The notes under the pieces were generated by a model, which saw nothing but the letters and a program-made list of their open reading frames with translations, searched no databases and was not told where the DNA came from. DNA of 43,899 bases from a bacterium 1xD42-67 (GTDB taxonomy: Bacteria > Bacillota > Clostridia > Oscillospirales > Oscillospiraceae). Position numbers and translations under genes: made by a program. Of this stretch, positions 7,822 to 20,072 are shown in pieces. The DNA is taken from NCBI GenBank assembly GCA_003612335.1, contig RAYO01000003.1, forward strand, positions 1-43,899. Reading direction: 5' to 3'. Positions within the stretch are counted from its first letter, which is position 1, and every line of letters begins with the position of its first letter.

Positions 7822-8526
7822 ATGGCATTCAACTACGATATCCCGGTCCTGGAGCTTCTGGACATCCTGGGCTGTCCGCCCGACCCCGACTACCAGCCAG
7901 ACCCCCGGCTCCCCGCCCTGCTGAACGATTTCCTGAGCCGGGCCTATAACAGCCCTCTGTTTAAAACGGCGGACATCTGGACCAAGCATCCCGCCTGGAC
8001 CTCCTACGAGGTCCTTGAGGAGCGGATCGAGGAGGACCGGGAGTACTACGAGGAGCACCCGGAGGAGCTGGAGGAGGACGACGCCTTTGGCCCCTTCTTC
8101 AAGCTGCCCAAGGAGGAGTGGCCCACCCTGGTGGAAAACTACCAGGAGATCGGCAGCGACTACGCCGCCGGAGTGGTGGAATTTGGCATCCGGGAGGGGG
8201 ACCTGGACCAAGCGGACCCGGTCGTCTACATGCTCCACGAGGAGGACGCGCCCATCGGCTGGAAGCAGTTTGCCCCCGATTTGACCGGCTATCTGAAATA
8301 TGTCCTGTGCGCCATCCTGTGCGGCGAGAGCTACCACACCGGACAGAACGTGCTGGAGAAAGCGGGCTGGACATATACAGCGTGCGAAAAGCCGGCAGAC
8401 GCCCCCATGATACCCTGCATCTTCGATCTGGCCGTGTGCTGCGGCTATGACCCGGACACCAGGACCGTCCTGGCCATCTTGTCTGACGCCGAGTGCAAGG
8501 CGTACCAGATCGCCAAAAAGGACTGA
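7822..8526 (+). CDS. Unknown acidic protein, possibly SUKH (SMI1/KNR4)-like
   Basis: 234-aa soluble, strongly acidic protein. The ATG at 7822 has an excellent Shine-Dalgarno (GAAGGAGGAAAG); the frame's longer upstream opening was rejected because it overlaps the promoter. A Glu-rich helix occurs around residues 68-92 (EERIEEDREYYEEHPEELEE). The segment near 125-170 (DPVVYMLHEED, then FAPDLTGYLKYVLCAILCG) recalls the end of SUKH/SMI1-KNR4 domains, where a short strand is followed by a final helix. This is a low-confidence fold guess. SUKH proteins are often immunity proteins, which would relate it to the array at 30-37 kb. A TetR gene starts 7 bases after its stop, so the two are co-transcribed. 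Confidence 0.7.
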   Translation: MAFNYDIPVLELLDILGCPPDPDYQPDPRLPALLNDFLSRAYNSPLFKTADIWTKHPAWTSYEVLEERIEEDREYYEEHPEELEEDDAFGPFFKLPKEEWPTLVENYQEIGSDYAAGVVEFGIREGDLDQADPVVYMLHEEDAPIGWKQFAPDLTGYLKYVLCAILCGESYHTGQNVLEKAGWTYTACEKPADAPMIPCIFDLAVCCGYDPDTRTVLAILSDAECKAYQIAKKD

Positions 8527-8533
8527 GGCGTAC

Positions 8534-9169
8534 ATGGCAAAGAAGAGCACCCGGAACACCCGGGGAAAGATCATCGACGCGGCCTGGAAGCTGTTCTACC
8601 GCCAGGGCTACGACGACACCACCGTGGAGGAGATCATCGAGGGATCGGGCACCTCCCGGGGGTCCTTCTATCACTACTTTCCCGGAAAGGACGGTCTGCT
8701 GTCCACCCTGGCCGACGTCTTCGACCAGAAATATGAGGAGCTGATGGAGAACATCGACCCGGAGATGGACCGCTTCGATCAGCTGATGTATCTCAATCGG
8801 GAGCTCTTCGCCATGATCGAGAGCGCCATCTCCCTGGACCTGCTGGCCCGTCTCTATTCCTCCCAGCTGGTGACACGGGGGGACAAGTCCCTCCTGGACC
8901 AGGGCCGCACCTATTACAAGCTCCTGCGGCAGATCGCGCTCCAGGGACAGGCCCGGGGGGAGCTGCGGACCGACGTCACCGCCAATGAGGTGGTCCGGGC
9001 CTATGCCCTGTGCGAACGGGCCCTGATCTATGACTGGTGCCTGTCCGGCGGAGATTGGTCCCTCACCCAGTATGCTCGGACCATGATGCCCATGTTCCTG
9101 CAGGGCTTCCGGGCGGGTGCCCCCTGCCCATACCGGGGGATCCCCTGTGCGCCAGACAAAACTTTGTAG
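8534..9169 (+). CDS. TetR/AcrR-family transcriptional regulator
   Basis: 211-aa one-component repressor. The N-terminal DNA-binding domain is classic: TRGKIIDAAWKLFYRQGYDD, then TTVEEIIEGSGTSRGSFYHY with FPGKDGLL. The C-terminal ligand/dimerisation region is all-helical and not diagnostic. The start at 8534 lies 7 bases after the preceding stop, with a modest AGGACTGAGG as ribosome site, so translation is probably coupled. Likely targets are its own operon or the symporter downstream: a 20-bp dyad at 9171-9190 directly after the stop could be an operator. The ligand is unknown. Confidence 0.9.
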   Translation: MAKKSTRNTRGKIIDAAWKLFYRQGYDDTTVEEIIEGSGTSRGSFYHYFPGKDGLLSTLADVFDQKYEELMENIDPEMDRFDQLMYLNRELFAMIESAISLDLLARLYSSQLVTRGDKSLLDQGRTYYKLLRQIALQGQARGELRTDVTANEVVRAYALCERALIYDWCLSGGDWSLTQYARTMMPMFLQGFRAGAPCPYRGIPCAPDKTL

Positions 9170-9170
9170 G

Positions 9171-9190
9171 AACGTACAAAACAGTATGTT
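9171..9190. promoter_or_regulatory. Possible TetR-type operator dyad
   Basis: AACGTAC and GTATGTT form 7-bp arms (one mismatch) around a 6-base spacer, starting one base after the TetR stop codon. The size and symmetry suit a TetR dimer. It does not overlap either nearby promoter, which weakens the case. Confidence 0.35.
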
Positions 9191-9200
9191 AGAAAATGTA

Positions 9201-9245
9201 CAGGCTGTTTTTCTTGGGATATCAAGAGAAACAGCCTGTTTTTAT
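9201..9245 (+). terminator. Terminator of the SUKH-like/TetR operon
   Basis: A 16-bp stem (CAGGCTGTTTTTCTTG with CAAGAGAAACAGCCTG, one G-U pair), GGATAT loop, then TTTTTA. Confidence 0.88.
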
Positions 9246-9271
9246 CCTGTCCGTCCGGATTTTGTTCTGGC

Positions 9272-9300
9272 TTGTGTTCTGGTCGTCTTTCTGGTATGAT
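9272..9300 (+). promoter_or_regulatory. Promoter of the symporter gene
   Basis: TTGTGT (9272-9277), 17-bp spacer, TATGAT (9295-9300), ~65 bases before the start codon. Confidence 0.6.
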
Positions 9301-9364
9301 ATCTATCGATCTGCTTTTTGCGGGCCTGTTGTCCCGCAGTGCAGTTATTATGGGAGGGATCTGA

Positions 9365-10894
9365 ATGACTACTGCGCAAATGTGTATCATGGGGACCATC
9401 ATCCTCTACCTCTGCTTCGTGATCTTCACCGGCGTGATGATCGGCCGCCGGTCCAAGAAGAGCGCGGAGGGCTTCTATCTGGGAGGCCGGGGGATGGGCC
9501 CCCTGGTCACCGCTATGAGCGCCGAGGCCAGCGACATGAGCAGCTACCTGCTCATGGGCATCCCCGGCCTGGCCTATCTGTCCGGCGTGGCTGACGCCAG
9601 CTGGACCGCCATCGGCCTGGCCGCGGGCACCTATCTGAACTTCCTGCTGGTGGCCAAGCGGCTGCGCCGCTACAGCGTGGAGCTGGACGCCATCACCATC
9701 CCCAGTTTCATCTCCAAGCGGTACGGCGAGAAGAAGCCGGTGATCATGTGCATCTCCGCCCTGATCATCCTGATCTTCTTCGTGCCCTATGTGGCCTCCG
9801 GCCTGGCCGCCATCGGCAAGCTGTTCAACAGCCTCTTCGGCTGGGACTACATGGCGGCGGTGGTGATCGGGGCCCTGGTCATCATCAGCTACACCTCGGT
9901 GGGCGGCTTCTCTGCCGTGGCCACCATGGACCTGATCCAGTCGGTCATCATGACGATCGCCCTGGCCATCATCGTGGTCTTCGGGATCGTCCAGGCCGGG
10001 GGCCTGGGTGCGGTGATCGACCACGCCAAGACCCTGCCCGGCTTCCTCAGCTTCGGTGAGACTTATAACGCGGCCACCGGCTCCGCCGACCCTTACGGCT
10101 TCATCCGCATCGTGTCCATGATGGCCTGGGGCCTGGGGTACTTCGGGATGCCCCACATCCTGGTGCGCTTCATGGCCATCCGTGACGAGGACGAGCTGAA
10201 GCTGTCCCGGCGGATCGCCTCGGTGTGGGTGGTGATCTCCATGGGAGTGGCGGTCTTCATCGGGATCGTGGGCCGCGCCGTCTCCGCTGTGGAGCGGATC
10301 CCCGCCCTGGAGGGCAGCGCCACCGAGACGGTGATCGTGAAGCTCTCCGACCTCCTCTCCAGCTATGGGATCTTCCCCGCCGTCGTGGCCGGCTGCATCC
10401 TGGCAGGCATCCTGGCCGCCACCATGTCCACTGCGGACAGCCAGCTCCTGGCCGCCTCCTCTGCCTTTTCGGAGAACCTGGTCCAGAACGTGTTCGGCGT
10501 CAAGCTGACCCAGAAGCAGACCATGATCATCGCCCGGCTCACTGTGGTGGTGATCGCGGCAATCGCCCTGTTCCTGGCCGCCGACCCGGACAGCAACGTG
10601 TTCCAGATCGTCTCCTTCGCCTGGGCTGGCTTCGGCGCCACCTTCGGGCCCGCCATGCTGTGCGCCCTCTTCTGGCGGCGGAGCAACCGCCAGGGCATCA
10701 TGGCCGGACTGGTGGCCGGCGGAGTGATGATCTTCGTGTGGAAGTTCCAGATCAAGCCCCTGGGCGGCATCTGGGACATCTATGAGCTCCTCCCCGCTTT
10801 CCTGGTGGCCCTGGCCGCGATCGTGGTGGTCTCTCTGGCCACCCCCGCCCCCGAGAAGGCGGTCACCGATCAGTTCGACGCCTACAACAAATAA
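9365..10894 (+). CDS. putP: Sodium/proline symporter (SSS family)
   Basis: 509-aa secondary transporter of the sodium:solute symporter family, probably taking up proline with Na+. About 13 membrane helices are visible. The first-helix signature AMSAEASDMSSYLLMGIPG matches the PutP substrate/sodium-site motif, followed by ASWTAIGLAAGTYLNF. The pattern GYFGMPHILVRFMAI and the late SFAWAGFGATFGPAMLCALF helix are also PutP-like. The start follows GGGAGGG at a suitable distance. It has its own promoter and is followed by a GC hairpin. Substrate assignment to proline rather than another amino or organic acid rests on family resemblance only. Confidence 0.9.
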   Translation: MTTAQMCIMGTIILYLCFVIFTGVMIGRRSKKSAEGFYLGGRGMGPLVTAMSAEASDMSSYLLMGIPGLAYLSGVADASWTAIGLAAGTYLNFLLVAKRLRRYSVELDAITIPSFISKRYGEKKPVIMCISALIILIFFVPYVASGLAAIGKLFNSLFGWDYMAAVVIGALVIISYTSVGGFSAVATMDLIQSVIMTIALAIIVVFGIVQAGGLGAVIDHAKTLPGFLSFGETYNAATGSADPYGFIRIVSMMAWGLGYFGMPHILVRFMAIRDEDELKLSRRIASVWVVISMGVAVFIGIVGRAVSAVERIPALEGSATETVIVKLSDLLSSYGIFPAVVAGCILAGILAATMSTADSQLLAASSAFSENLVQNVFGVKLTQKQTMIIARLTVVVIAAIALFLAADPDSNVFQIVSFAWAGFGATFGPAMLCALFWRRSNRQGIMAGLVAGGVMIFVWKFQIKPLGGIWDIYELLPAFLVALAAIVVVSLATPAPEKAVTDQFDAYNK

Positions 10895-10903
10895 CAGACT
10901 GCC

Positions 10904-10930
10904 AGGGGCGCGCCGGAACGGCGCGTCCCT
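10904..10930 (+). terminator. GC-rich hairpin after putP
   Basis: AGGGGCGCGCC paired with GGCGCGTCCCT around GGAAC, 9 bases past the putP stop. There is no T-run, so it may be an RNA-stabilising or attenuating structure before the next gene, which has no obvious promoter of its own. Confidence 0.45.
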
Positions 10931-10953
10931 GTGCCCCCAAGGAGGTACAGGTG

Positions 10954-12147
10954 ATGGGCCCTGTTTTGAATCTTCTGATCTTCCCCCGCCAGCGGCTCAA
11001 GCGTGTCCAGCCGGAGGTGGACGCCCTGTCTGACGCTGTCATGCGCCTGTTCGACATGGACATGTCCGGGACCCTGTGGACGGAGCAGCGGGAGGGGACC
11101 TTCGCCCGGCTCACAGGGGGCGCCTCCCCGGAGATGCTGGCCCGCATCCCCTCGGCCAAGGCGGAGTGTACCGCGCTGCTGGTCTTCCGCCGGGAGGAAG
11201 GGGGCTGGGGCTACCGGCTGTGCTGGAAGGGCACGGTGGAGGACGCCTTCGAGAGCTGGACCGAGAGCGCCGCCACGCCGGAGCAGCACGCCGCCCGGAT
11301 GGTCCGGCGCTTCCCTAAGCTGGACCGGGAGGCCCTCCTGGCCTGTCTGGTCCAGGAGACGCCGGGGGAAGATGTCCTGGAGCGCTTTTTGGCCGCAGCG
11401 GTCCCCTGGGCCTGCGGACTGGCCGCCTCGAAGCAGCTGGTCTCGGTCTCCGCCGCCTCGGGCCCGGACCGCTCCTCCCCCCAGGAGAATGCCCCGGACC
11501 GGTCGGAGGGCCAGCGCCCGCCGGAGCAGGAGCCGGGACTGGAGGTCTGCCTGCCCTTCCTCACCGGCGTCCGGGCCCTCCGCCGCCCTCCCGTCTTCCC
11601 GCTGTCCCTGTTCCAAAAGCGGGCCGCGGAGGAGATCTCCCACCAGGGCTGGACCGTCCAGGAGCTGGAGGAGGTTTTAGACCGGTTCTACAGCGGCCGG
11701 CTGGCCTGGCTGGAGCTGGACTTTTCCCTTCAGGGAGAGGGGACCTTCATCCGCCGGCTGAGGAAGACGGTGTATCAGCCCGTCCGGGCCACCCTGGAGC
11801 TCATCCGGGAGAAAAAGCGGTGCATGTGCCTGTTTTTGGACGACCAGGATTCCTGCCTCTACCGGCTGATCGCCGACCGGACGCCCTATATGGAGGAGGA
11901 GTCGGATCAGCTGGAGCAGACCGTCTTCCTGGGCCAGACGGTGGACCGGTATACGGTCTTCCAGGAGCCCCAGCCCGCCGCCATCCCCCGGGAGGTGTCC
12001 TTCCTCCTGTCCCGGCTGGACTGCCGGGACAGCGCCCTCAGTCCCACCCTCCGGATGGGGGTCTGGAGCGGCGAGGGGACCATCACCAACACCGCCGCCG
12101 ACAGACAGCGGCACCAGGAGGTGCGGGAGATCTGGCGGCTCAAATGA
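10954..12147 (+). CDS. Hypothetical protein, 397 aa
   Basis: Not recognised. AAGGAGG at 10939-10945 precedes GTG 10951 and ATG 10954; the ATG has the better 8-base spacing. No signal peptide, membrane helix or catalytic motif is visible. The protein splits into an N-terminal half (about residues 1-165, ending VPWACGLAASKQL), a Pro/Ser-rich linker (about 168-195), and a C-terminal half containing QKRAAEEISHQGWTVQELEE and a segment rich in Arg, Leu and Glu. Hydrophobic helices alternate with charged strands as in a soluble cytosolic protein. It shares the putP transcript (gap 59 bases) unless the hairpin between them stops transcription, and ends at its own terminator. Confidence 0.75.
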   Translation: MGPVLNLLIFPRQRLKRVQPEVDALSDAVMRLFDMDMSGTLWTEQREGTFARLTGGASPEMLARIPSAKAECTALLVFRREEGGWGYRLCWKGTVEDAFESWTESAATPEQHAARMVRRFPKLDREALLACLVQETPGEDVLERFLAAAVPWACGLAASKQLVSVSAASGPDRSSPQENAPDRSEGQRPPEQEPGLEVCLPFLTGVRALRRPPVFPLSLFQKRAAEEISHQGWTVQELEEVLDRFYSGRLAWLELDFSLQGEGTFIRRLRKTVYQPVRATLELIREKKRCMCLFLDDQDSCLYRLIADRTPYMEEESDQLEQTVFLGQTVDRYTVFQEPQPAAIPREVSFLLSRLDCRDSALSPTLRMGVWSGEGTITNTAADRQRHQEVREIWRLK

Positions 12148-12154
12148 CAGCGCA

Positions 12155-12186
12155 GGCCCGGAGCACCGCCCCGGGCCCTTTTTTTG
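12155..12186 (+). terminator. Terminator of the putP-downstream gene
   Basis: Stem GGCCCGG / CCGGGCC followed by CTTTTTTT, 7 bases after the stop codon. Confidence 0.88.
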
Positions 12187-12208
12187 AGACGGATCTGGCA
12201 GATGGGGG

Positions 12209-12237
12209 TTGAAGGATGGGCAGAGACCTGCCATAAT
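12209..12237 (+). promoter_or_regulatory. Promoter of the ribosomal GTPase-NYN gene
   Basis: TTGAAG (12209-12214), 17-bp spacer, CATAAT (12232-12237), 30 bases before the ATG. Confidence 0.65.
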
Positions 12238-12266
12238 AGAGAGAAAGAGCGGAAGGAGGAGAGCGG

Positions 12267-14879
12267 ATGGGACATATCTGCATTGGGATCATGGCCCATG
12301 TGGACGCGGGCAAGACCACCCTCTCCGAGGGGATGCTGTATCTCAGCGGCGCGGTGCGCAGGCTGGGCCGGGTGGACCATGGGGACGCCTTCCTGGACAC
12401 CGACGTCCAGGAGCGGGAGCGGGGGATCACGATCTTCTCCAAACAGGCGGAGCTCACCTGGGGGGACACCTCCTTCACCCTGCTGGACACCCCAGGGCAC
12501 GTGGACTTCTCCGCCGAGATGGAGCGGGTGCTGGGGGTGTTGGACTGCGCCGTCCTGGTGATCAGCGGCGCCGACGGCGTTCAGGCCCACACCCGCACCC
12601 TGTGGAAGCTGCTGGCCCGGCATCAGATCCCCACCTTCCTCTTCGTCAACAAGATGGACCTGGCGGGGGCGGACCGGGACGCCCTCCTGGCCCAGCTCCA
12701 GGATAAGCTGGACGGCGGCTGTCTGGACTTCTCCGCCGGACTGGAGCCCATTCTGGAGGACCTGGCCTCCTCGGACGAGGAACTGCTGGACAAATACCTG
12801 GAGTGGGGGGAGGTCACCTGGGAGGACGCCGCCGCCCTCGTCGCCCGGCGGCTGGTCTTCCCCTGCTTTTTCGGCTCGGCCCTGAAGCTGGAGGGGGTGG
12901 AGGCCCTGCTGGACGGCCTGTCCCGCTATGTCCCGGCGCCGGAGCACCCCGCCGACTTTGGGGCCCGGGTCTTCAAGATCGCCCGGGACGGGGCCGACCG
13001 GCTCACCTATGTAAAGGTCACCGGCGGCTCCCTCAAGGTCCGCACCCTGCTGGGGGAGGAGAAGGTCAACCAGATCAGGATATACTCCGGGGCCAGGTAC
13101 CAGACGGTGGACGAGGCCCCGGCGGGGACGGTGTGCGCCCTCACCGGCCTGACCAAGACCCGGCCGGGGGACGTCTTCGGGGCGGAGCCCCCCGCCGCCG
13201 GGCCCGAGCTGGAGCCAGTGCTGACCTACCAGGTCGTCCTCCCCCCGGGCTGTGATGTCCACGCCACGCTCCGCGATCTCCGCCAGCTGGAGGAGGAGGA
13301 CCCCCAGCTCCGGGTGGTGTGGAGCGAGGCGCTGGGGGAGATCCACCTCCAGCTCATGGGTGAGGTCCAGCTGGAGGTGCTCACCCGGCTCATCCGGGAG
13401 CGTTTCGGGACGGAGGTCACCTTCGGGGCGGGCAGCATCGTCTACCGGGAGACCATCACCGGCCCGGTGGAGGGGGTAGGCCACTTCGAGCCCCTGCGGC
13501 ACTACGCCGAGGTCCATCTGCTCTTAGAGCCCGGCCCCCGGGGGAGCGGGCTGCGCTTCTCCTCCGCCTGCCCCACGGATCAGCTGGACCTGAACTGGCA
13601 GCGGCTGGTCCTCACCCACCTGATGGAGAAGGAACACCGGGGGGTGCTCACCGGCTCCCCCATCACCGATATGAAGATCGCACTGGTGGCGGGCCGGGCC
13701 CACGTGAAGCACACCGAGGGGGGCGACTTCCGCCAGGCCACCTACCGGGCGGTGCGCCAGGGGCTGATGCAGGCGGACAACCTGCTGCTGGAGCCCCACT
13801 ACGACTTCACCCTGGAGCTCCCCCCGGACTGCGTAGGCCGGGCCATGAACGATTTACAGACCATGGGGGGCAGCGTGGAGGGCCCGGAGCAGGAGGGGGA
13901 GCTGTCCGTCCTGACGGGCCACGCCCCGGTGGCCGGCCTGCGGGACTACTGGCGGGAAGTGACAGCCTACACCCGGGGCCGGGGCCGGCTGTCCTGCGCC
14001 CTCCGGGGCTACGAGCCCTGCGCCAGCCAGGAGGAGGTGGTCTCCCGCCTGGCCTACGACCCGGAGCGGGACGTGGACAACCCGCCCGACTCGGTCTTCT
14101 GCTCCCACGGGGCTGGGGTGACCGTCAAGTGGTACGAGGTCCGGGACCACATGCACGTGGACAGCGGCCTTCGGCTGGGGACGGAGCCGCTCCCGCCGGA
14201 GCCAGCCGCCCCCTCGGGCGGGGAGCGGCAGTACCGGGGGGGCAGTCTGGAGCAGGATAAGGAGCTGCTGGCCGTCTTCGAGCGGACCTACGGCAAGGTG
14301 GAGCGGGAAACTGCCTTCCAGCCCCAGCGGAAGCCGGCCCGCACCAGCCTGGACGAGGGGAAGTATACCATCCGGGAGCAGAATACCGGTCCGGAGTACC
14401 TCCTGGTGGACGGCTACAACATCATTTTCGCCTGGGACGAGCTCACCGCTCTGGCCCGGCAGGACATGCCCGCCGCCCGGGGTGCGCTGGAGGACATTCT
14501 GTCCAACTACCAGGGCTTCCGCAGGTGCGTGGTGATCCTGGTGTTCGACGCCTACAAGGTGAAGGGGAACCCGGGTTCGGTGGAGAAAAAGAACAACATC
14601 TATGTGGTCTACACCAGGGAGGCCGAGACGGCGGACGCCTACATCGAAAAGGCCACCTATGACCTGGGCAGAGACCACCGGGTCCGGGTGGCCACCTCCG
14701 ACGCTCTGGAGCAGATGATCATCCTGGGCCATGGGGCCCTGCGGCTGTCCGCCCGGGCCTTCAAGGCGGAGGTGGAGCAGGCCCAGGGGGAGATCTCCGC
14801 CTTGGTGGCCAAGCTGAACCGGCGGAATATCGGCGACCGAAAACTGAGACATACGGCGAAGATCATTGAGAAGAAGTAA
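12267..14879 (+). CDS. Tet(M)-like ribosomal GTPase fused to a YacP/Rae1-like NYN nuclease
   Basis: 870-aa two-part protein. Residues 1-~650 form an EF-G/ribosomal-protection GTPase: G1 AHVDAGKTT at 10-18, G2 region RERGITI at 49-55, G3 DTPGH at 74-78, G4 NKMD at 128-131, and an EF-G-like domain III-V region ending in CALRGYEPC. After a charged linker, residues ~710-870 form a NYN/PIN-like domain with acidic residues Asp715 (YLLVDGYNIIFAW), Asp761 (LVFDAYKVKG), Asp790 (ETADAYIEK) and Asp812 (VATSDALEQ). This is the pattern of YacP/Rae1, the Bacillus ribosome-dependent endonuclease that cuts mRNA in the A site. Tet(M) proper is ~640 aa and lacks the extra domain. Inferred role: a translation factor that enters the A site and cleaves mRNA there; drug resistance is unproven. 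ATG at 12267 follows AAGGAGGA. Confidence 0.9.
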   Translation: MGHICIGIMAHVDAGKTTLSEGMLYLSGAVRRLGRVDHGDAFLDTDVQERERGITIFSKQAELTWGDTSFTLLDTPGHVDFSAEMERVLGVLDCAVLVISGADGVQAHTRTLWKLLARHQIPTFLFVNKMDLAGADRDALLAQLQDKLDGGCLDFSAGLEPILEDLASSDEELLDKYLEWGEVTWEDAAALVARRLVFPCFFGSALKLEGVEALLDGLSRYVPAPEHPADFGARVFKIARDGADRLTYVKVTGGSLKVRTLLGEEKVNQIRIYSGARYQTVDEAPAGTVCALTGLTKTRPGDVFGAEPPAAGPELEPVLTYQVVLPPGCDVHATLRDLRQLEEEDPQLRVVWSEALGEIHLQLMGEVQLEVLTRLIRERFGTEVTFGAGSIVYRETITGPVEGVGHFEPLRHYAEVHLLLEPGPRGSGLRFSSACPTDQLDLNWQRLVLTHLMEKEHRGVLTGSPITDMKIALVAGRAHVKHTEGGDFRQATYRAVRQGLMQADNLLLEPHYDFTLELPPDCVGRAMNDLQTMGGSVEGPEQEGELSVLTGHAPVAGLRDYWREVTAYTRGRGRLSCALRGYEPCASQEEVVSRLAYDPERDVDNPPDSVFCSHGAGVTVKWYEVRDHMHVDSGLRLGTEPLPPEPAAPSGGERQYRGGSLEQDKELLAVFERTYGKVERETAFQPQRKPARTSLDEGKYTIREQNTGPEYLLVDGYNIIFAWDELTALARQDMPAARGALEDILSNYQGFRRCVVILVFDAYKVKGNPGSVEKKNNIYVVYTREAETADAYIEKATYDLGRDHRVRVATSDALEQMIILGHGALRLSARAFKAEVEQAQGEISALVAKLNRRNIGDRKLRHTAKIIEKK

Positions 14880-14880
14880 C

Positions 14881-14916
14881 AGAGACAGCCTGCTGGACCA
14901 GGCTGTCTCTCTTATT
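14881..14916 (+). terminator. Terminator of the GTPase-NYN gene
   Basis: Perfect 12-bp stem (AGAGACAGCCTG / CAGGCTGTCTCT), 6-base loop, then CTTATT, directly after the stop codon. Confidence 0.85.
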
Positions 14917-14964
14917 GCTCCCATTCGCTCTTATGTTCCTCCCACCGGGCAGGAGGATCCCTTG

Positions 14965-16035
14965 CTACAGTGCCCGCAGCGCCGCACCTGCCAGCCGGGC
15001 CAGGGAGGCGGCCACGGTGAGCAGGTCCTTGGGGGCCACATCCTTGACGGCCCGAAGGACATCGGCCAGGTTCTGGGGCTCCAGAGCCTCTGACACCAGC
15101 TTGGCGTCGCCGGAGGACAGCAGCTCATAGAGGGTATCCGCCACCGTCTCCCGCTGTTGGTTGGTCAGCCCCGCCAGCCAGTCCTTCAGGGCCCGGTCGA
15201 TCATCCGGCTCCCGGCGTCCACCTCCTCCAGCCGGACGAAGTCGGGGCCCCGTATCTGCCAGGAATAGAGGTCGTGTTGGAACAGGCCCTCCTGGTCGCT
15301 CTCTACCACAGTGTGGGGCTCCTCGTGGGCCAGGAGCAGCCCCACCACCGAGGACCTGGGGACGAAGCTGTGCAGGCGGGTGCGCAGCTCCTGATAACCC
15401 GGCCGGGCCAGGAGATAGGGCCCGAATCCCGGGCCGTCGAAGGACCAGACCGTCCCGATCCTGTCCCGGGCCCTCACTGGGCACAGAGAGGCCCCCGCTG
15501 CCGCCAGATTGCCCCCCTTGGAGTGTCCCCCCAGCCGCAGAGGGGCGGGAGAGCGCTCCGCGAAGGTCCGGATATACTCCGCCGCCTCCAGTTGGGCGGG
15601 GACCACATCCAAAAAGCTCAGGTTGAAGTCCTCCTTCCAGCCCACCAGGGTGCCGTCGGTCCCCCGGAAGGCCAGGAAGGCGGAGCCATCCCCCGGCAGG
15701 ACGGTGAGGGCGGCGAACTGGCTCTCCTCTTTGGGGACGAACCGGTCCGCATAGCGGCACAGCCCCATTTTGGCGAACCGGGGGGCGCCGGCCAGGGCCT
15801 GGAGGAGGACCAGGTCCTCCTCACACCGGCAGCGGCCCCGTTGGTCCTCCGGCAGGGCCAGATATGTCTCCGCCGCCCGGCCCAGAGGGACCGGGTCCTC
15901 CAACCCGGCGGGGATCAGCCCGTCGAAGTGGATATAGGACAGGGCGGACAGGACCAGCGCGTCCACCGCAGAGAACGGGACCTGCTCCAGGGTCAGATCC
16001 CCCCGCCAGGCCAGATAGTCGATCACATTCCCCAA
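14965..16035 (-). CDS. DUF2974 (Mbeg1-like) lipase-fold protein
   Basis: 356-aa alpha/beta-hydrolase-like protein of the DUF2974 family. The nucleophile elbow GGHSKGGNLA places Ser172 as catalytic candidate; FRGTDG at 123-128 supplies the oxyanion-type motif, and WSFDGPGF and SFVPRSSVVGLLLAHEEPH hold acid and base candidates. Substrate is unknown; no signal peptide is visible, so it is probably cytosolic. The start is a TTG at 16035: it sits 6-7 bases after AGGAGGAGGG, and the first in-frame ATG would be residue 90, losing the conserved N-terminus (NVIDYLAWRGDLTLEQVPF), which is family-typical. Divergent from spoIIID across ~107 bp. Confidence 0.87.
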   Translation of the reverse strand: MGNVIDYLAWRGDLTLEQVPFSAVDALVLSALSYIHFDGLIPAGLEDPVPLGRAAETYLALPEDQRGRCRCEEDLVLLQALAGAPRFAKMGLCRYADRFVPKEESQFAALTVLPGDGSAFLAFRGTDGTLVGWKEDFNLSFLDVVPAQLEAAEYIRTFAERSPAPLRLGGHSKGGNLAAAGASLCPVRARDRIGTVWSFDGPGFGPYLLARPGYQELRTRLHSFVPRSSVVGLLLAHEEPHTVVESDQEGLFQHDLYSWQIRGPDFVRLEEVDAGSRMIDRALKDWLAGLTNQQRETVADTLYELLSSGDAKLVSEALEPQNLADVLRAVKDVAPKDLLTVAASLARLAGAALRAL

Positions 16036-16083
16036 TGGGCCCTCCTCCTCTCTCCTCAGCCTATGCGCCAGCCGGAAAAAAGC

Positions 16084-16112
16084 TCATATCCTTTGGAGGG
16101 GACGCATAGGAT
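16084..16112 (+). promoter_or_regulatory. Candidate sigma-E promoter of spoIIID
   Basis: TCATATC (16084-16090), 14-bp spacer, CATAGGAT (16105-16112). This matches the Bacillus sigma-E consensus (KMATATT, 14 bp, CATACAMT) at 6 of 7 and 6 of 8 positions, and spoIIID is a known mother-cell sigma-E gene. Confidence 0.65.
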
Positions 16113-16142
16113 GGAACAGCTAGAGTCGGGGAGTGTTGCGCG

Positions 16143-16391
16143 TTGAAAGGAAATATGGAGGAGCGGGCCGAGCGTCTGGCGCTCTATATCCTGGAGAACC
16201 GGGCGACGGTTCGGGCCGCCGCCCAGAGATTCGAGATCAGCAAATCGACCGTACACAAGGATCTGTCCGAGCGGCTGCCCGCCTTCAACCGGACGCTCTA
16301 CCTCCAGGTGAAAGAGGTCCTGGAGGCGAACAAGGCGGAGCGTCATATCCGGGGGGGCCTGGCCACACGGAAAAAATACAAAGGAACATGA
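16143..16391 (+). CDS. spoIIID: Sporulation stage III transcriptional regulator SpoIIID
   Basis: 82-aa mother-cell DNA-binding regulator acting between sigma-E and sigma-K. The helix-turn-helix (RAAAQRFEISKSTVHKDLSE, about residues 25-44) and the basic tail (AERHIRGGLATRKKYK) match SpoIIID closely. Start choice: the TTG at 16143 gives MKGNMEERAERL, which aligns without gaps to the N-terminus of Bacillus SpoIIID (MHDYIKERTIKI), and GGGGAG lies 9 bases upstream. The alternative ATG at 16155 would remove four residues and has a very close AAAGGA site. Followed by a strong hairpin. Confidence 0.93.
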   Translation: MKGNMEERAERLALYILENRATVRAAAQRFEISKSTVHKDLSERLPAFNRTLYLQVKEVLEANKAERHIRGGLATRKKYKGT

Positions 16392-16395
16392 GAGA

Positions 16396-16423
16396 GGGCC
16401 GCCCCAGACGGGGCGGCCCTTCT
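16396..16423 (+). terminator. Terminator of spoIIID
   Basis: Stem GGGCCGCCCC / GGGGCGGCCC with AGAC loop, then TTCT. It lies between converging spoIIID and pyk and may serve both. Confidence 0.7.
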
Positions 16424-16436
16424 GTGATGTACACGG

Positions 16437-17867
16437 TCACATAGCGTCTTCGTCGATGATCTGAGCTTTGATCAGGTTGGTGTAGCCGCTCTTGCCCAGG
16501 GGGATCCCGGCGGTGATGACCACGGTGTCGCCGTTCTCCACCAGCCGCTCCTTCAGGGCCACCTCGGCGGACAGGGAGAAGATCCGGTCGGTGGAGGTGA
16601 CCTCTCCGGTGAGGAAGGGGATCACCCCCCAGGAGACGTTCAGCTGACGGCGGACCTTCTCGTGCATGGTGAGGGCGGCGATGGGGCAGGCGGGGCGGAA
16701 CCGGCAGATCATCCGTGCGCTGCGGCCGGAGTTGGTGGCGGCCAGGATCGCCTTGGCCTCCAGGTCCTTGGCGGTGAGGCAGCAGGTGTGGGTGATCGCG
16801 TCGTTGATGTCGGAGGTGGGGATGACCCGCTGCTTCTGGAACTGCTTCCAGTAGTCGATGGCCCCCTCCGTCTCGGTGACGATGGTCACCATGGCGGTCA
16901 GCGCCTCGATGGGGTACTTGCCTCCGGCAGTCTCGCCGGAGAGCATCACACAGCCGGTGCCGTCGTAGACGGCGTTGGCCACGTCGGACACCTCGGCCCG
17001 GGTGGGACGGGGGTTGCGCATCATGGAATCCAGCATCTGGGTGGCGGTGATCACTGGCTTGCCCGCCTGGAGGCCCTTGCGGATCATCTGCTTTTGCAGG
17101 ATGGGCACACGGGCGGCGGGGATCTCCACCCCCAGGTCTCCCCGAGCCACCATGATCCCGTCGGCGGCGGCCAGGATCTCGTCCAGGTTGTCCACCCCCT
17201 CCTGGTTCTCGATCTTCGCGATGATCCTCACATCGTCCCCACCGCAGTCGTGGAGGACCTGGCGGACCGCCTCCACATCCGCCGCCCGGCGGACGAAGGA
17301 GGCGGCGATGAAGTCGAAATCGTTCTCCACGCCGAATCGGATGTCGTCCACGTCCTTCTCGGTGAGGGCGGGGAGCTGGATATGGACGCCGGGGATATTG
17401 ATGGACTTGTTGGCGGACAGGGTGCCGCCGTTCTCCACGGTGCAGAGGATCCTGGTCCCCTCGATCCGGTCCACCCGGATGGCCACCAGGCCGTCATCGA
17501 TCAGGATCTCCTGCCCGGGAGAGAGCTCCTCATGGAGCCGGGGGTAAGAGACGGACACGCAGCTCTGATCCCCCGTCACGTCCTCGGTGGTCAGGGTGAA
17601 GGGATCCCCCGCCTCCAAGGTGATGGATCGGGTCTCGAAGCTCCTGATGCGGATCTCGGGGCCCTTGGTGTCCAGGATGGTGGCCACCGGACGGCCCATG
17701 GTATCCCGGACGGCCTTGAGCATGTTCAGCCGCTCCAGATGCTCCGGATGGCTGCCGTGGGAAAAGTTGAACCGGGCCGCGTCCATTCCGGTGCGGATCA
17801 GGGTGCGGATCATGTCCTCACTGTCCACTGCGGGGCCCAGGGTGCAGATGATCTTCGTTCTTCTCAT
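16437..17867 (-). CDS. pyk: Pyruvate kinase
   Basis: Final glycolytic step, converting phosphoenolpyruvate and ADP to pyruvate and ATP. At 476 aa it is the compact form without the C-terminal PEP-utiliser domain seen in Bacillus (about 585 aa). Motifs include RTKIICTLGP at the N-terminus, ARFNFSHGSH, ILDTKGPEIR, IIAKIENQEG, the signature MVARGDLGVEIP and ITATQMLDSM with NPRPTRAEVSDVANAV after it. AAGGAGGAGATC precedes the ATG. It lies downstream of metG on the same strand but is separated by the metG terminator, so it probably has its own promoter in the 115-bp gap, which I could not place with confidence. Confidence 0.97.
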   Translation of the reverse strand: MRRTKIICTLGPAVDSEDMIRTLIRTGMDAARFNFSHGSHPEHLERLNMLKAVRDTMGRPVATILDTKGPEIRIRSFETRSITLEAGDPFTLTTEDVTGDQSCVSVSYPRLHEELSPGQEILIDDGLVAIRVDRIEGTRILCTVENGGTLSANKSINIPGVHIQLPALTEKDVDDIRFGVENDFDFIAASFVRRAADVEAVRQVLHDCGGDDVRIIAKIENQEGVDNLDEILAAADGIMVARGDLGVEIPAARVPILQKQMIRKGLQAGKPVITATQMLDSMMRNPRPTRAEVSDVANAVYDGTGCVMLSGETAGGKYPIEALTAMVTIVTETEGAIDYWKQFQKQRVIPTSDINDAITHTCCLTAKDLEAKAILAATNSGRSARMICRFRPACPIAALTMHEKVRRQLNVSWGVIPFLTGEVTSTDRIFSLSAEVALKERLVENGDTVVITAGIPLGKSGYTNLIKAQIIDEDAM

Positions 17868-17981
17868 AGTGATCTCCTCCTTCGGGAATCATCGTTCTTT
17901 CCTTGCGTACGCCCCCTATGTTACAGGAAAAATCTCCGGTTGGATAGGGCAGAATTCCATAAAAATGTAAGCGTCTCCAGG

Positions 17982-18017
17982 AAAAAAGTGTGCTGTCCCT
18001 CCAAGAGAGACAGCACA
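17982..18017 (-). terminator. Terminator of metG
   Basis: On the minus strand TGTGCTGTC pairs with GACAGCACA around a short loop and is followed by CTTTTTT; it begins 13 bases after the metG stop. Confidence 0.88.
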
Positions 18018-18029
18018 TTTTACACTTTT

Positions 18030-20072
18030 TTAACACATTTTTGCCCCGGCAGGGATCTTGTCGTCCAGGATCAGCAGATTCAGGCGCTCCTCTCCCTTCT
18101 CGGTGTGGACAGCGGAGATGAGCATCCCCTGGCTCTCTTGGCCCATCATCTTCCGGGGAGGCAGGTTGACGATGGCCATCAGGGTCTTGCCCACCAGCTC
18201 CTCGGGCTTATACCACTTGGCGATCCCGGACAGGATCTGCCGGTCGGTGCCGGTGCCGTCGTCCAGGGTGAAGCGGAGCAGCTTGTCGCTCTTCTTCACC
18301 GGCTGGCAGTCCTTCACCTTCACCGCCCGGAAGTCGGACTTGCAGAAGGTGTCGAAGTCCACCTTCTCCTCCAGTTGGGGCTCGGTCTCCAAGTCGGGGA
18401 GAGCGGCCTTTTTGGCGGCCTCGGCGGCCGCCTCCAGTTCCTTGAGGGCCTTTTCGGTGTCGATGCGGGGGAACAGGTTCTCTCCCCGCTGAACGGCGAC
18501 GGTCTGAGGCAGAGCGCCCCACTGTGCCGCGCTGTCCCAGGTGGAGCACTTCTCGCAGGCGCCGATCTGCCGCAGCACCTCAGCGGCGGAGGTGGGGATG
18601 AAGGGGGTGAGCAGGATGGCGCACACCCGCAGGGTCTCCAGCAGGTTGTACATCACGTGGGCCAGCCGGGGGCCGTTGGCGGTGATATCCTTGGCCAGCA
18701 CCCAGGGGGCGTTCTCGTCAATATACTTGTTTGCCCGGTCAATCACCTTGAAGATCTCCGCCAGGCCGTTCTGGAAGGCGAAGTGCTCCATCTGCTCCTC
18801 GTAGCGGCTCCGGAGGGCAGAGGCCAGAGCGATCAGCTCCACGTCGCAGGCATCATCCCCCGGTTCAACAGTCACACCGAAGCAGTTGGGCTGGGCGCAA
18901 CGCTCCGCAAGTCGAAGCTCCTCCTCGGACGGGCCGCAGCCGGCGGGCAGCTGCCCGCCGAAGTACTTGCCCACCATGGACACGGTGCGGCTGAGCAGGT
19001 TGCCCAGGTCGTTGGCCAGGTCCACGTTGATGGTCTGAATCAGGGCCTCGTTGGAAAAGTTGCCGTCGGACCCGAAGGGGAAGGTGCGCAGCAGGAAGAA
19101 GCGCAGGGCGTCCACCCCGAACATCTCCGCCAGGATATAGGGGTCCACCACGTTGCCCTTGGACTTGGACATCTTGCCCCCGTCCAGCAGCAGCCAGCCG
19201 TGGCCAAACACCTTTTTGGGCAAAGGCTCTCCCAGGCTCATAAGCATGGCGGGCCAGATGATGGAGTGGAAGCGGACGATCTCCTTGCCCACAAAGTGGA
19301 CGTCGGCGGGCCAGAATTTGTCGTAGTCGTCATACTGGTCGTTATCATAGCCCAGGGCGGTGATATAGTTGGACAGGGCGTCCACCCACACATAGACCAC
19401 GTGGCCGGGGTCGAAGTCCACCGGGATGCCCCAGGTGAAGGAGGTGCGGGAGACGCACAGGTCCTCCAGGCCGGGCTTGATGAAGTTGTTCACCATCTCG
19501 TTCACCCGGGAGCGGGGCTCCAGAAAGTCGGTGTCCTCCAGCAGGTGCTGGATCTTGTCCGCGTACTTGGACAGCTTGAAGAAGTAGGCCTCCTCCTCCG
19601 CGTCCTGGACCTCCCGGCCGCAGTCGGGGCACTTGCCGTCCACCAGCTGGCTGTCCGTCCAGAAGGACTCGCAGGGCTTGCAGTATTTGCCCACATACTT
19701 GCCCTTGTAGATGTCCCCGTTGTCGTGCAGCTTCTTGAAGATCTTTTGGATGGCGGACACATGGTAGCTGTCGGTGGTGCGGATAAACCGGTCGTTGGAG
19801 ATGTTCATCAGCTTCCACAGGTCCAGAATGCCCCGGTCCCCTCGGACGATGTTGTCCACAAACTCCTGGGGGGTGATTCCGGCCTCCCGGGCTTTGTCCT
19901 CGATCTTCTGGCCGTGCTCGTCGGTGCCGGTGAGGAACATCACCTCACAGCCGGTGAGCCGCTTGTACCGGGCCATTGCGTCGGTGGCTACGGTGCAGTA
20001 GGTGTGGCCGATGTGCAGCTTGTCGCTGGGGTAGTAGATGGGGGTGGTGATATAATAACGTCTCTTTTCCAT
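18030..20072 (-). CDS. metG: Methionyl-tRNA synthetase
   Basis: 680-aa class I aminoacyl-tRNA synthetase that charges tRNA-Met. HIGH is at residues 20-23 and KMSKS at 300-304. A zinc-knuckle insertion has Cys131/Cys134 and Cys148/Cys151 (CKPC and CPDC). The C-terminal ~110 residues (FDTFCKSDFRAVKVKDC onward) form the EMAP-II/Trbp111-like tRNA-binding domain that dimerises the enzyme. The start codon follows AAGGGAGACC. No T-box or SAM riboswitch is visible upstream; the gene lies 127 bp downstream of a membrane-protein gene on the same strand with a large hairpin between them. Confidence 0.97.
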   Translation of the reverse strand: MEKRRYYITTPIYYPSDKLHIGHTYCTVATDAMARYKRLTGCEVMFLTGTDEHGQKIEDKAREAGITPQEFVDNIVRGDRGILDLWKLMNISNDRFIRTTDSYHVSAIQKIFKKLHDNGDIYKGKYVGKYCKPCESFWTDSQLVDGKCPDCGREVQDAEEEAYFFKLSKYADKIQHLLEDTDFLEPRSRVNEMVNNFIKPGLEDLCVSRTSFTWGIPVDFDPGHVVYVWVDALSNYITALGYDNDQYDDYDKFWPADVHFVGKEIVRFHSIIWPAMLMSLGEPLPKKVFGHGWLLLDGGKMSKSKGNVVDPYILAEMFGVDALRFFLLRTFPFGSDGNFSNEALIQTINVDLANDLGNLLSRTVSMVGKYFGGQLPAGCGPSEEELRLAERCAQPNCFGVTVEPGDDACDVELIALASALRSRYEEQMEHFAFQNGLAEIFKVIDRANKYIDENAPWVLAKDITANGPRLAHVMYNLLETLRVCAILLTPFIPTSAAEVLRQIGACEKCSTWDSAAQWGALPQTVAVQRGENLFPRIDTEKALKELEAAAEAAKKAALPDLETEPQLEEKVDFDTFCKSDFRAVKVKDCQPVKKSDKLLRFTLDDGTGTDRQILSGIAKWYKPEELVGKTLMAIVNLPPRKMMGQESQGMLISAVHTEKGEERLNLLILDDKIPAGAKMC

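What the first reader, a model, noticed from the sequence alone, without database searches (positions are those of the whole stretch)
12267..14879. Ribosomal-protection GTPase fused to an A-site-type NYN nuclease
An EF-G/Tet(M)-like GTPase that should enter the ribosomal A site carries a C-terminal YacP/Rae1-like NYN domain with four visible acidic residues (715, 761, 790, 812). Rae1 is known to cleave mRNA in the A site. The fusion would deliver the nuclease by GTP-dependent ribosome binding, suggesting a stalled-ribosome or drug-stress mRNA cutter rather than simple tetracycline protection. I recall long translation-factor GTPase entries of similar length in Clostridia, but the role of the fusion is, to my knowledge, undescribed.
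Basis: partly seen in the sequence, partly recalled or inferred. Interest (0 to 1): 0.78.

Follow-up and report, generated by a model that had tools for sequence, protein, structure and literature searches.

The report
Ribosome GTPase fused to Rae1 nuclease
A gut bacterium carries one protein that joins a ribosome-binding GTPase to the mRNA-cutting enzyme Rae1, and comparison with relatives suggests that this joined protein has taken over the job of the separate Rae1 gene.

Summary

New here: (1) In 291 Clostridia genomes, 105 have the fusion (5 contig-cut or broken) and 83 a free Rae1; none has both. (2) In one genus, 7 of 11 genomes have the fusion and 4 the free rae1; none has both. (3) In 21 of 35 fusion genomes examined rlmB lies beside sigH without the intact rae1 found there in relatives; five keep rae1 traces in the gap (one clear, four weaker). 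(4) The GTPase belongs to a subfamily lacking the Tet drug-displacing loop; it also occurs alone, but no fusion genome has an intact separate copy.

Best reading: a chromosomal, GTPase-tethered Rae1 that cuts mRNA on paused ribosomes in place of Rae1, not a tetracycline-resistance factor. Ribosome delivery and cleavage are inferred.

The parts
12267..14879 (+). 870-aa fusion gene: translational GTPase + extension + linker + Rae1-type NYN nuclease
12273..12935 (+). GTPase domain (residues 3-223), P-loop AHVDAGKTT at 10, DTPGH at 74, NKMD at 128
   Evidence: Pfam GTP_EFTU; motif positions
12960..13427 (+). EF-G domains II and III (residues 232-387)
13434..13775 (+). EF-G domain IV (residues 390-503)
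13698..13733 (+). domain IV loop III, AHVKHTEGGDFR (residues 478-489); Tet(M/O/Q) have YYSPVSTPADFR in these columns, EF-G has FHEVDSSEMAFK
13785..14030 (+). EF-G domain V (residues 507-588)
14031..14162 (+). subfamily-specific extension (589-632; modelled as ordered to 628) with invariant C612 and H630; shared with the NYN-less relatives, absent from Tet(M/O/Q) and EF-G
14163..14393 (+). linker (633-709; 62-143 residues from H630 to Y711 in 69 fusions), modelled as disordered at 641-661 and 678-704
14247..14291 (+). short conserved helix inside the linker (661-675, DKELLAVFERTYG type); role unknown
14400..14831 (+). NYN_YacP / Rae1 domain (712-855); acids D715, D761, D790, D812 (also E794)
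12209..12237 (+). sigma-A-like promoter TTGAAG-17-CATAAT; leader of about 25 bases
   Evidence: consensus match only
   Evidence: read
14881..14910 (.). terminator-like inverted repeat after the fusion, found on both strands

Best explanation
The protein is a chromosomal translational GTPase with the ribosome-dependent nuclease Rae1 permanently tethered to it. The GTPase part most likely docks at the factor site of a paused ribosome, with domain IV reaching towards the decoding centre. The Rae1 domain, on its long linker, cuts the mRNA in or near the A site, leaving the ribosome for rescue (for instance by tmRNA). It supplants the free Rae1 of related bacteria. Shown: the domains, intact GTPase and nuclease residues, the predicted Rae1 fold, mutual exclusion with free Rae1 in the genomes searched, absence and in one clear case decay of rae1 at its usual locus in fusion carriers, and a GTPase subfamily distinct from Tet. 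Inferred: ribosome binding, GTP dependence, A-site cleavage, rescue.
For: Fold and catalytic-type acids of Rae1. G-domain motifs kept. Fusion (105 of 291, including 5 contig-cut or broken) and free Rae1 (83 of 291) never share a genome (Fisher p 1.5e-20, not corrected for kinship). In genus g36, 7 of 11 genomes have the fusion, 4 free rae1, 0 both, 0 neither. rae1 lies between rlmB and sigH in 9 of 15 free-Rae1 genomes looked at; in 21 of 35 fusion genomes rlmB and sigH are neighbours with no intact rae1 between. In G025 that gap holds a decayed rae1 (blastn E 3e-42, 68% over 477 bases to the intact gene of G059 in the same genus, 15-17 stops in each frame of the gap); G155, G199, G292 and G112 hold weaker pieces at the same place and strand. 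Shuffled loci gave 2 hits in 30 replicates of 41 loci. B. subtilis Rae1 is described as an A-site endoribonuclease (PMC6613710 passages; PMC12320835 passages).
Against: I found no biochemistry on the fusion in the papers I could read. 47 of 120 genomes of the window's own family and 102 of 291 in the class have no NYN_YacP match, so the function is dispensable (some genomes are incomplete). In 14 of 35 fusion genomes, the window's included, sigH was not recognised beside rlmB, so displacement at that site could not be judged. Free Rae1 works without a GTPase attached. If domain IV fills the A site, the nuclease cannot be there at the same moment; it must act before, after, or on another RNA. 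Most of the linker is poorly conserved. Exclusion partly reflects kinship.
Confidence: 0.6

Rival explanations
1. It is a tetracycline-resistance ribosomal protection protein whose nuclease adds a new resistance mechanism (the proposal of Atkinson 2015).
For: The best NCBIfam model is tet_protect (402.9 bits). Public records name some relatives TetM/TetW/TetO/TetS family. Published proposal (PMC4342817). A Tet(M) triple mutant S508A P509A V510A is reported active (PMC4750697 passage), so a different loop does not by itself exclude protection.
Against: The score is about half the curated cut-off of 775. Loop III and the C-terminal segment differ from Tet(M/O/Q) in all 41 fusions, and loop III is KHTEGGDF in 69 of 69. 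The tree separates fusion plus free relatives from Tet plus EF-G (SH-aLRT 99, quick tree with a long EF-G branch). Only 2 of 72,556 plasmid records hold a place covering 80% of the fusion. The window's gene has only about 25 leader bases.
Confidence: 0.12
2. The NYN domain cuts structural RNA (rRNA or tRNA) during maturation or quality control rather than mRNA in the A site.
For: NYN domains were proposed to mature rRNA and tRNA (cited in PMC4342817). In 9 of 15 free-Rae1 genomes rae1 lies beside rlmB, an rRNA methylase gene.
Against: The closest solved relative, Rae1, is described as an A-site mRNA endonuclease, and the fusion stands in for exactly that gene.
Confidence: 0.15
3. The fusion is only a convenience of co-expression: the GTPase has its own unrelated ribosome task and the nuclease acts alone.
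For: Of 16 genomes with an intact free GTPase, 6 have no Rae1 match, and the link between free GTPase and free Rae1 is not significant (p 0.19). In G243 both parts occur apart, the NYN being of fused type. 73 of 83 free-Rae1 genomes have no such GTPase.
Against: The fusion excludes both free parts: of 105 fusion genomes none holds free Rae1 and none an intact separate GTPase (p 0.0008 for the GTPase, uncorrected; G070 has a second, contig-cut GTPase piece of unknown kind). A linker is kept in all 69 fusions, with a better conserved stretch in its middle (mean column identity 0.64 against 0.31 and 0.27).
Confidence: 0.2
4. Mutual exclusion is only shared ancestry (clades with one or the other) and says nothing about function.
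For: Fused and free NYN domains form two main groups in the tree (2 label changes), so genomes are not independent trials.
Against: The exchange is seen inside one genus (7 against 4), both states occur within families f25, f26, f30 and f31, and rae1 traces persist in fusion carriers.
Confidence: 0.1

Closest known systems
Rae1/YacP (B. subtilis; PDB 5mq8, 5mq9)
   Same: NYN fold, four catalytic-type acids (D7, D53, D81, D104 = D715, D761, D790, D812), about 39% identity; by exclusion the fusion occupies the same niche
   Different: Rae1 is a free protein of about 170 aa; here it is the C-terminal domain of a GTPase
Tet(M)/Tet(O)/Tet(Q) ribosomal protection proteins
   Same: EF-G-type five-domain GTPase, about 30% identity, presumably the same ribosomal site
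   Different: no SPVS-type loop III, no Tet C-terminal segment, carries a C612/H630 extension and a nuclease; about half of the curated Tet cut-off; rarely on plasmids
Tet-NYN proteins of ten Clostridiales (Atkinson 2015)
   Same: by description the same architecture
   Different: that paper filed them under Tet and proposed RNase-based resistance or rRNA cleavage; its list of members (Additional file 8) was not read, so identity of members is not checked
Free GTPases of about 640-730 aa in Clostridia and Ligilactobacillus (a similar stretch in a Paenibacillus record was not opened)
   Same: loop III KHTxGGDFR in 16 of 17, C612 and H630 in 17 of 17; 40-53% identity over residues 1-632
   Different: stop after the extension; no linker and no nuclease

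Membership tests
Rae1/YacP nuclease domain | NYN_YacP profile above its cut-off | tested here: met
   159.9 bits against 24.6
Rae1/YacP nuclease domain | Rae1 fold | tested here: met
Rae1/YacP nuclease domain | conserved catalytic-type acids across the family | tested here: met
   D715, D761, D790 69/69; D812 68/69
Rae1/YacP nuclease domain | ribosome-dependent cleavage of mRNA in the A site | not testable with these tools
   needs biochemistry
Translational GTPase (EF-G/EF2 branch) | G domain with intact GTP motifs plus domains II-V | tested here: met
Translational GTPase (EF-G/EF2 branch) | ribosome-stimulated GTP hydrolysis | not testable with these tools
   needs biochemistry
Tet ribosomal protection protein | curated NCBIfam cut-off (NF012153, 775 bits) | tested here: not met
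   402.9 bits; five free relatives 381-432
Tet ribosomal protection protein | loop III of domain IV as in Tet(M/O/Q) (SPVSTPADF) | tested here: not met
   KHTEGGDF in 69 of 69 fusions; Tet rows
Tet ribosomal protection protein | Tet C-terminal segment after domain V | tested here: not met
   replaced by the C612/H630 extension
Tet ribosomal protection protein | raises the tetracycline MIC | not testable with these tools
   needs an experiment

The most novel reading that the evidence does not exclude
A two-part ribosome-rescue device: a translational GTPase subfamily, mistaken for tetracycline resistance, that opens or holds the A site of paused ribosomes for the nuclease Rae1. Some bacteria keep the two parts as separate genes; many gut Oscillospiraceae, Ruminococcaceae and Lachnospiraceae carry them fused, and the fusion displaced both free genes. 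Rae1 would have a dedicated GTPase partner in nature.
Probability: 0.33. Interest if true: 0.82.

Novelty: new variant of a known kind. Interest (0 to 1): 0.6.

Why it matters
If right, a large class of genes in gut anaerobes, some of which databases name tetracycline-resistance ribosomal protection proteins, is really translation quality control, which matters for resistome counts. It would also be a translational GTPase that carries its own mRNA nuclease (I know of no other, from recall), and a natural system in which the question how Rae1 gets into the A site becomes testable.

Tried and rejected
Operon or partner genes: no neighbour family recurs in more than 7 of 121 loci within the flanks held, so context gives no function. 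Known RNA elements: no Rfam match in 8000-20000. Mobile resistance: a protein search of plasmids gave 2 records covering 80% of the fusion; of the 40 rows listed in the spread the others are mainly tet genes, EF-G, TypA, LepA and a free GTPase. Kinship of the free GTPases with TetB(P): no Clostridium among the 38 plasmid records at E <= 1e-100 for one free form; TetB(P) itself was not fetched, so this is indirect. Obligatory pairing of free GTPase and Rae1: not supported (p 0.19). Direction of the exchange in genus g36: the trees do not decide between gain of the fusion and regain of rae1. In the GTPase tree 14 of 16 free forms group together (97) while L084 and L035 lie unresolved near the fusions. 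Fused NYN as one clade is neither shown nor rejected (AU p 0.525). The full-length fold search spans residues 1-598 and does not test the extension or linker. Rows dropped: L065 (broken); L177 from alignment A2; A3 holds the window and 62 of 77 NYN stretches; L089 and cut or broken forms from the tree. Literature: nine searches. Of the six papers opened, as passages only (PMC4342817, its outline too, PMC6613710, PMC12320835, PMC10100781, PMC4750697, PMC8161019), only PMC4342817 describes the fusion; most listed papers were seen as titles and abstract starts alone. Leroy 2017, Li 2013, Condon 2018 (on the distribution of Rae1), Deves 2023 and Gilet 2025 are not held, so prior mention there is not excluded.

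Full report

Prior art. Atkinson 2015 (PMC4342817; outline and passages read) states that Tet proteins from ten Clostridiales species have acquired a YacP-like NYN RNase domain and suggests a resistance mechanism by RNase activity. The fusion is therefore not a new object. That paper predates the Rae1 work of 2017. Nine library searches (listed under Tried and rejected) brought up no second paper on the fusion among the titles, abstract starts and passages that I saw; key Rae1 papers are not held.

How common. A search with residues 600-870 scored 7,996 candidates, all of them matches, which was the ceiling of that search; all 120 listed (the window included) carry NYN_YacP together with EFG_IV and EFG_C by precomputed Pfam. 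The 80 kept come from records named Oscillospiraceae, Ruminococcaceae, Lachnospiraceae and unplaced Clostridia, among them Lawsonibacter, Oscillibacter, Anaerostipes butyraticus and Mediterraneibacter. Of 121 loci examined, 109 are full-length fusions in one alignment, 2 more in one frame but two pieces, 6 are cut by a contig end and 4 are broken in frame. The gene stands alone: no neighbour family occurs in more than 7 of 121 loci. In the window a promoter-like site ends 29 bases before the start codon.

Exclusion of free Rae1. In 291 genomes of the class, 189 match NYN_YacP and 188 exceed the cut-off. Sorted by reading frame: 100 have GTPase and NYN in one frame, 5 are probable fusions that are cut or broken (G180, G215, G051, G139, G224), 83 have free Rae1, 1 a sub-threshold hit (G248), 102 none. 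No genome has both. G136, G201 and G242 have second hits, all below the cut-off; G133 has two fusions. In the window's own family 73 of 120 have NYN_YacP, one match each, 69 in frames of 800 aa or more; the other 4 (125-602 aa) were not examined; 47 have none. The window's genome has only the fusion.

Displacement. In genus g36, 7 of 11 genomes carry the fusion and 4 free rae1. All 4 have rlmB-rae1-sigH; all 7 have rlmB-sigH without intact rae1. Over all 50 rlmB loci looked at, 9 of 15 free-Rae1 genomes show rlmB-rae1-sigH and 21 of 35 fusion genomes show rlmB next to sigH without rae1. In the other 6 and 14 no sigH was recognised next to rlmB, and the window's genome is one of these. In G025 the gap holds a clear rae1 remnant (blastn E 3e-42, 68% over 477 bases; 15-17 stops per frame). 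G155 (tblastn 3e-6) is fairly clear; G112 (blastn 3e-6 over 39 bases), G292 (blastn 4e-5) and G199 (tblastn 1e-4) are weaker. All five lie in the gap on the expected strand; no other fusion locus gave a hit at E 1e-3. Shuffled loci gave 2 hits in 30 replicates of 41 loci. Three of the four free-Rae1 genomes of g36 also carry a free GTPase of 662-693 aa; the fourth, G059, has none; the 7 fusion genomes have no separate GTPase.

The free GTPase in the class. One search shows a gap in E-values between 6e-77 and 4e-34. Above it lie the fusions and NYN-less forms. Sixteen genomes have an intact NYN-less form, 10 with and 6 without Rae1; G237 is broken and G131 cut. No fusion genome has an intact separate one; G070 has a second, contig-cut piece of unknown kind. 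So the fusion excludes both free parts (Fisher p 1.5e-20 and 0.0008, uncorrected for kinship), but the free GTPase does not need Rae1 (p 0.19).

The GTPase subfamily. Fusions and free forms share loop III KHTxGGDFR (16 of 17 free forms; exception L035) and a C612...H630 extension absent from Tet(M/O/Q) and EF-G. The column of Tet(M) Pro509, which contacts C1054 in the drug site (PMC8161019 passage), is K481 in 69 of 69. H479 takes the column of the EF-G tip histidine (alignment; that this is H573 of Thermus EF-G is my reading). Against over-reading this: a Tet(M) triple loop mutant is reported active (PMC4750697 passage). The tree splits the subfamily from Tet plus EF-G with SH-aLRT 99, but it is a quick tree, the EF-G branch is long (5.64) and 24 of 58 inner branches are open. 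Fused and free NYN domains need 2 label changes; the one exception, free NYN of G243, sits among the fused ones, without a GTPase trace beside it, and looks like a domain freed from a fusion.

Mechanism. Shown: an intact nuclease domain on an intact translational GTPase that stands where relatives have free Rae1. From the literature: Rae1 is described as cutting mRNA in the A site. From general knowledge: EF-G-type factors place domain IV at the decoding centre. Inferred: the GTPase brings Rae1 to paused ribosomes. Because domain IV and the nuclease cannot both fill the A site, I favour sequential action: the GTPase docks and leaves or swings back, and the nuclease, held by a linker of 62-143 residues, enters. 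The conserved helix in the linker and the C612/H630 extension are unexplained.

Verdict.

Noticed in passing
L038 and hits H33-H44 (Clostridioides difficile plasmid records): Twelve C. difficile records filed as plasmids hold rae1; the one opened carries gltX-cysS-RNase III-like-thyX-rlmB-rae1-sigH-tuf-rpmG-secE-nusG-rplK, which looks like a chromosome piece filed as a plasmid.
   Followed up: partly
L039 (MT835563.1, 'Bacteriophage sp.', unverified): A 32-kb faecal record labelled phage encodes an 875-aa fusion 59% identical to the window's; probably a bacterial contig.
   Followed up: no
L035, L036 and Ligilactobacillus salivarius megaplasmids: Free GTPases (and the Agathobacter fusion L036) are named TetM/TetW/TetO/TetS tetracycline resistance in public records; the L. 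salivarius form L035, the one of these scored here, reaches about half of the curated Tet cut-off.
   Followed up: partly
window 14247-14291: A conserved helix (DKELxxIFERTYG type) in the middle of an otherwise variable linker; possible docking site.
   Followed up: partly
window 14031-14162: Invariant C612 and H630 in the extension, with a Cys after the His in many free forms; a metal site is possible.
   Followed up: no
window 10951-12147: The upstream 398-aa ORF has no Pfam match.
   Followed up: no
G133 (L045, L046) and G121 (L094, L095): One incomplete genome has two fusions from different parts of the tree (perhaps a mixed assembly); another has two free GTPases.
   Followed up: no
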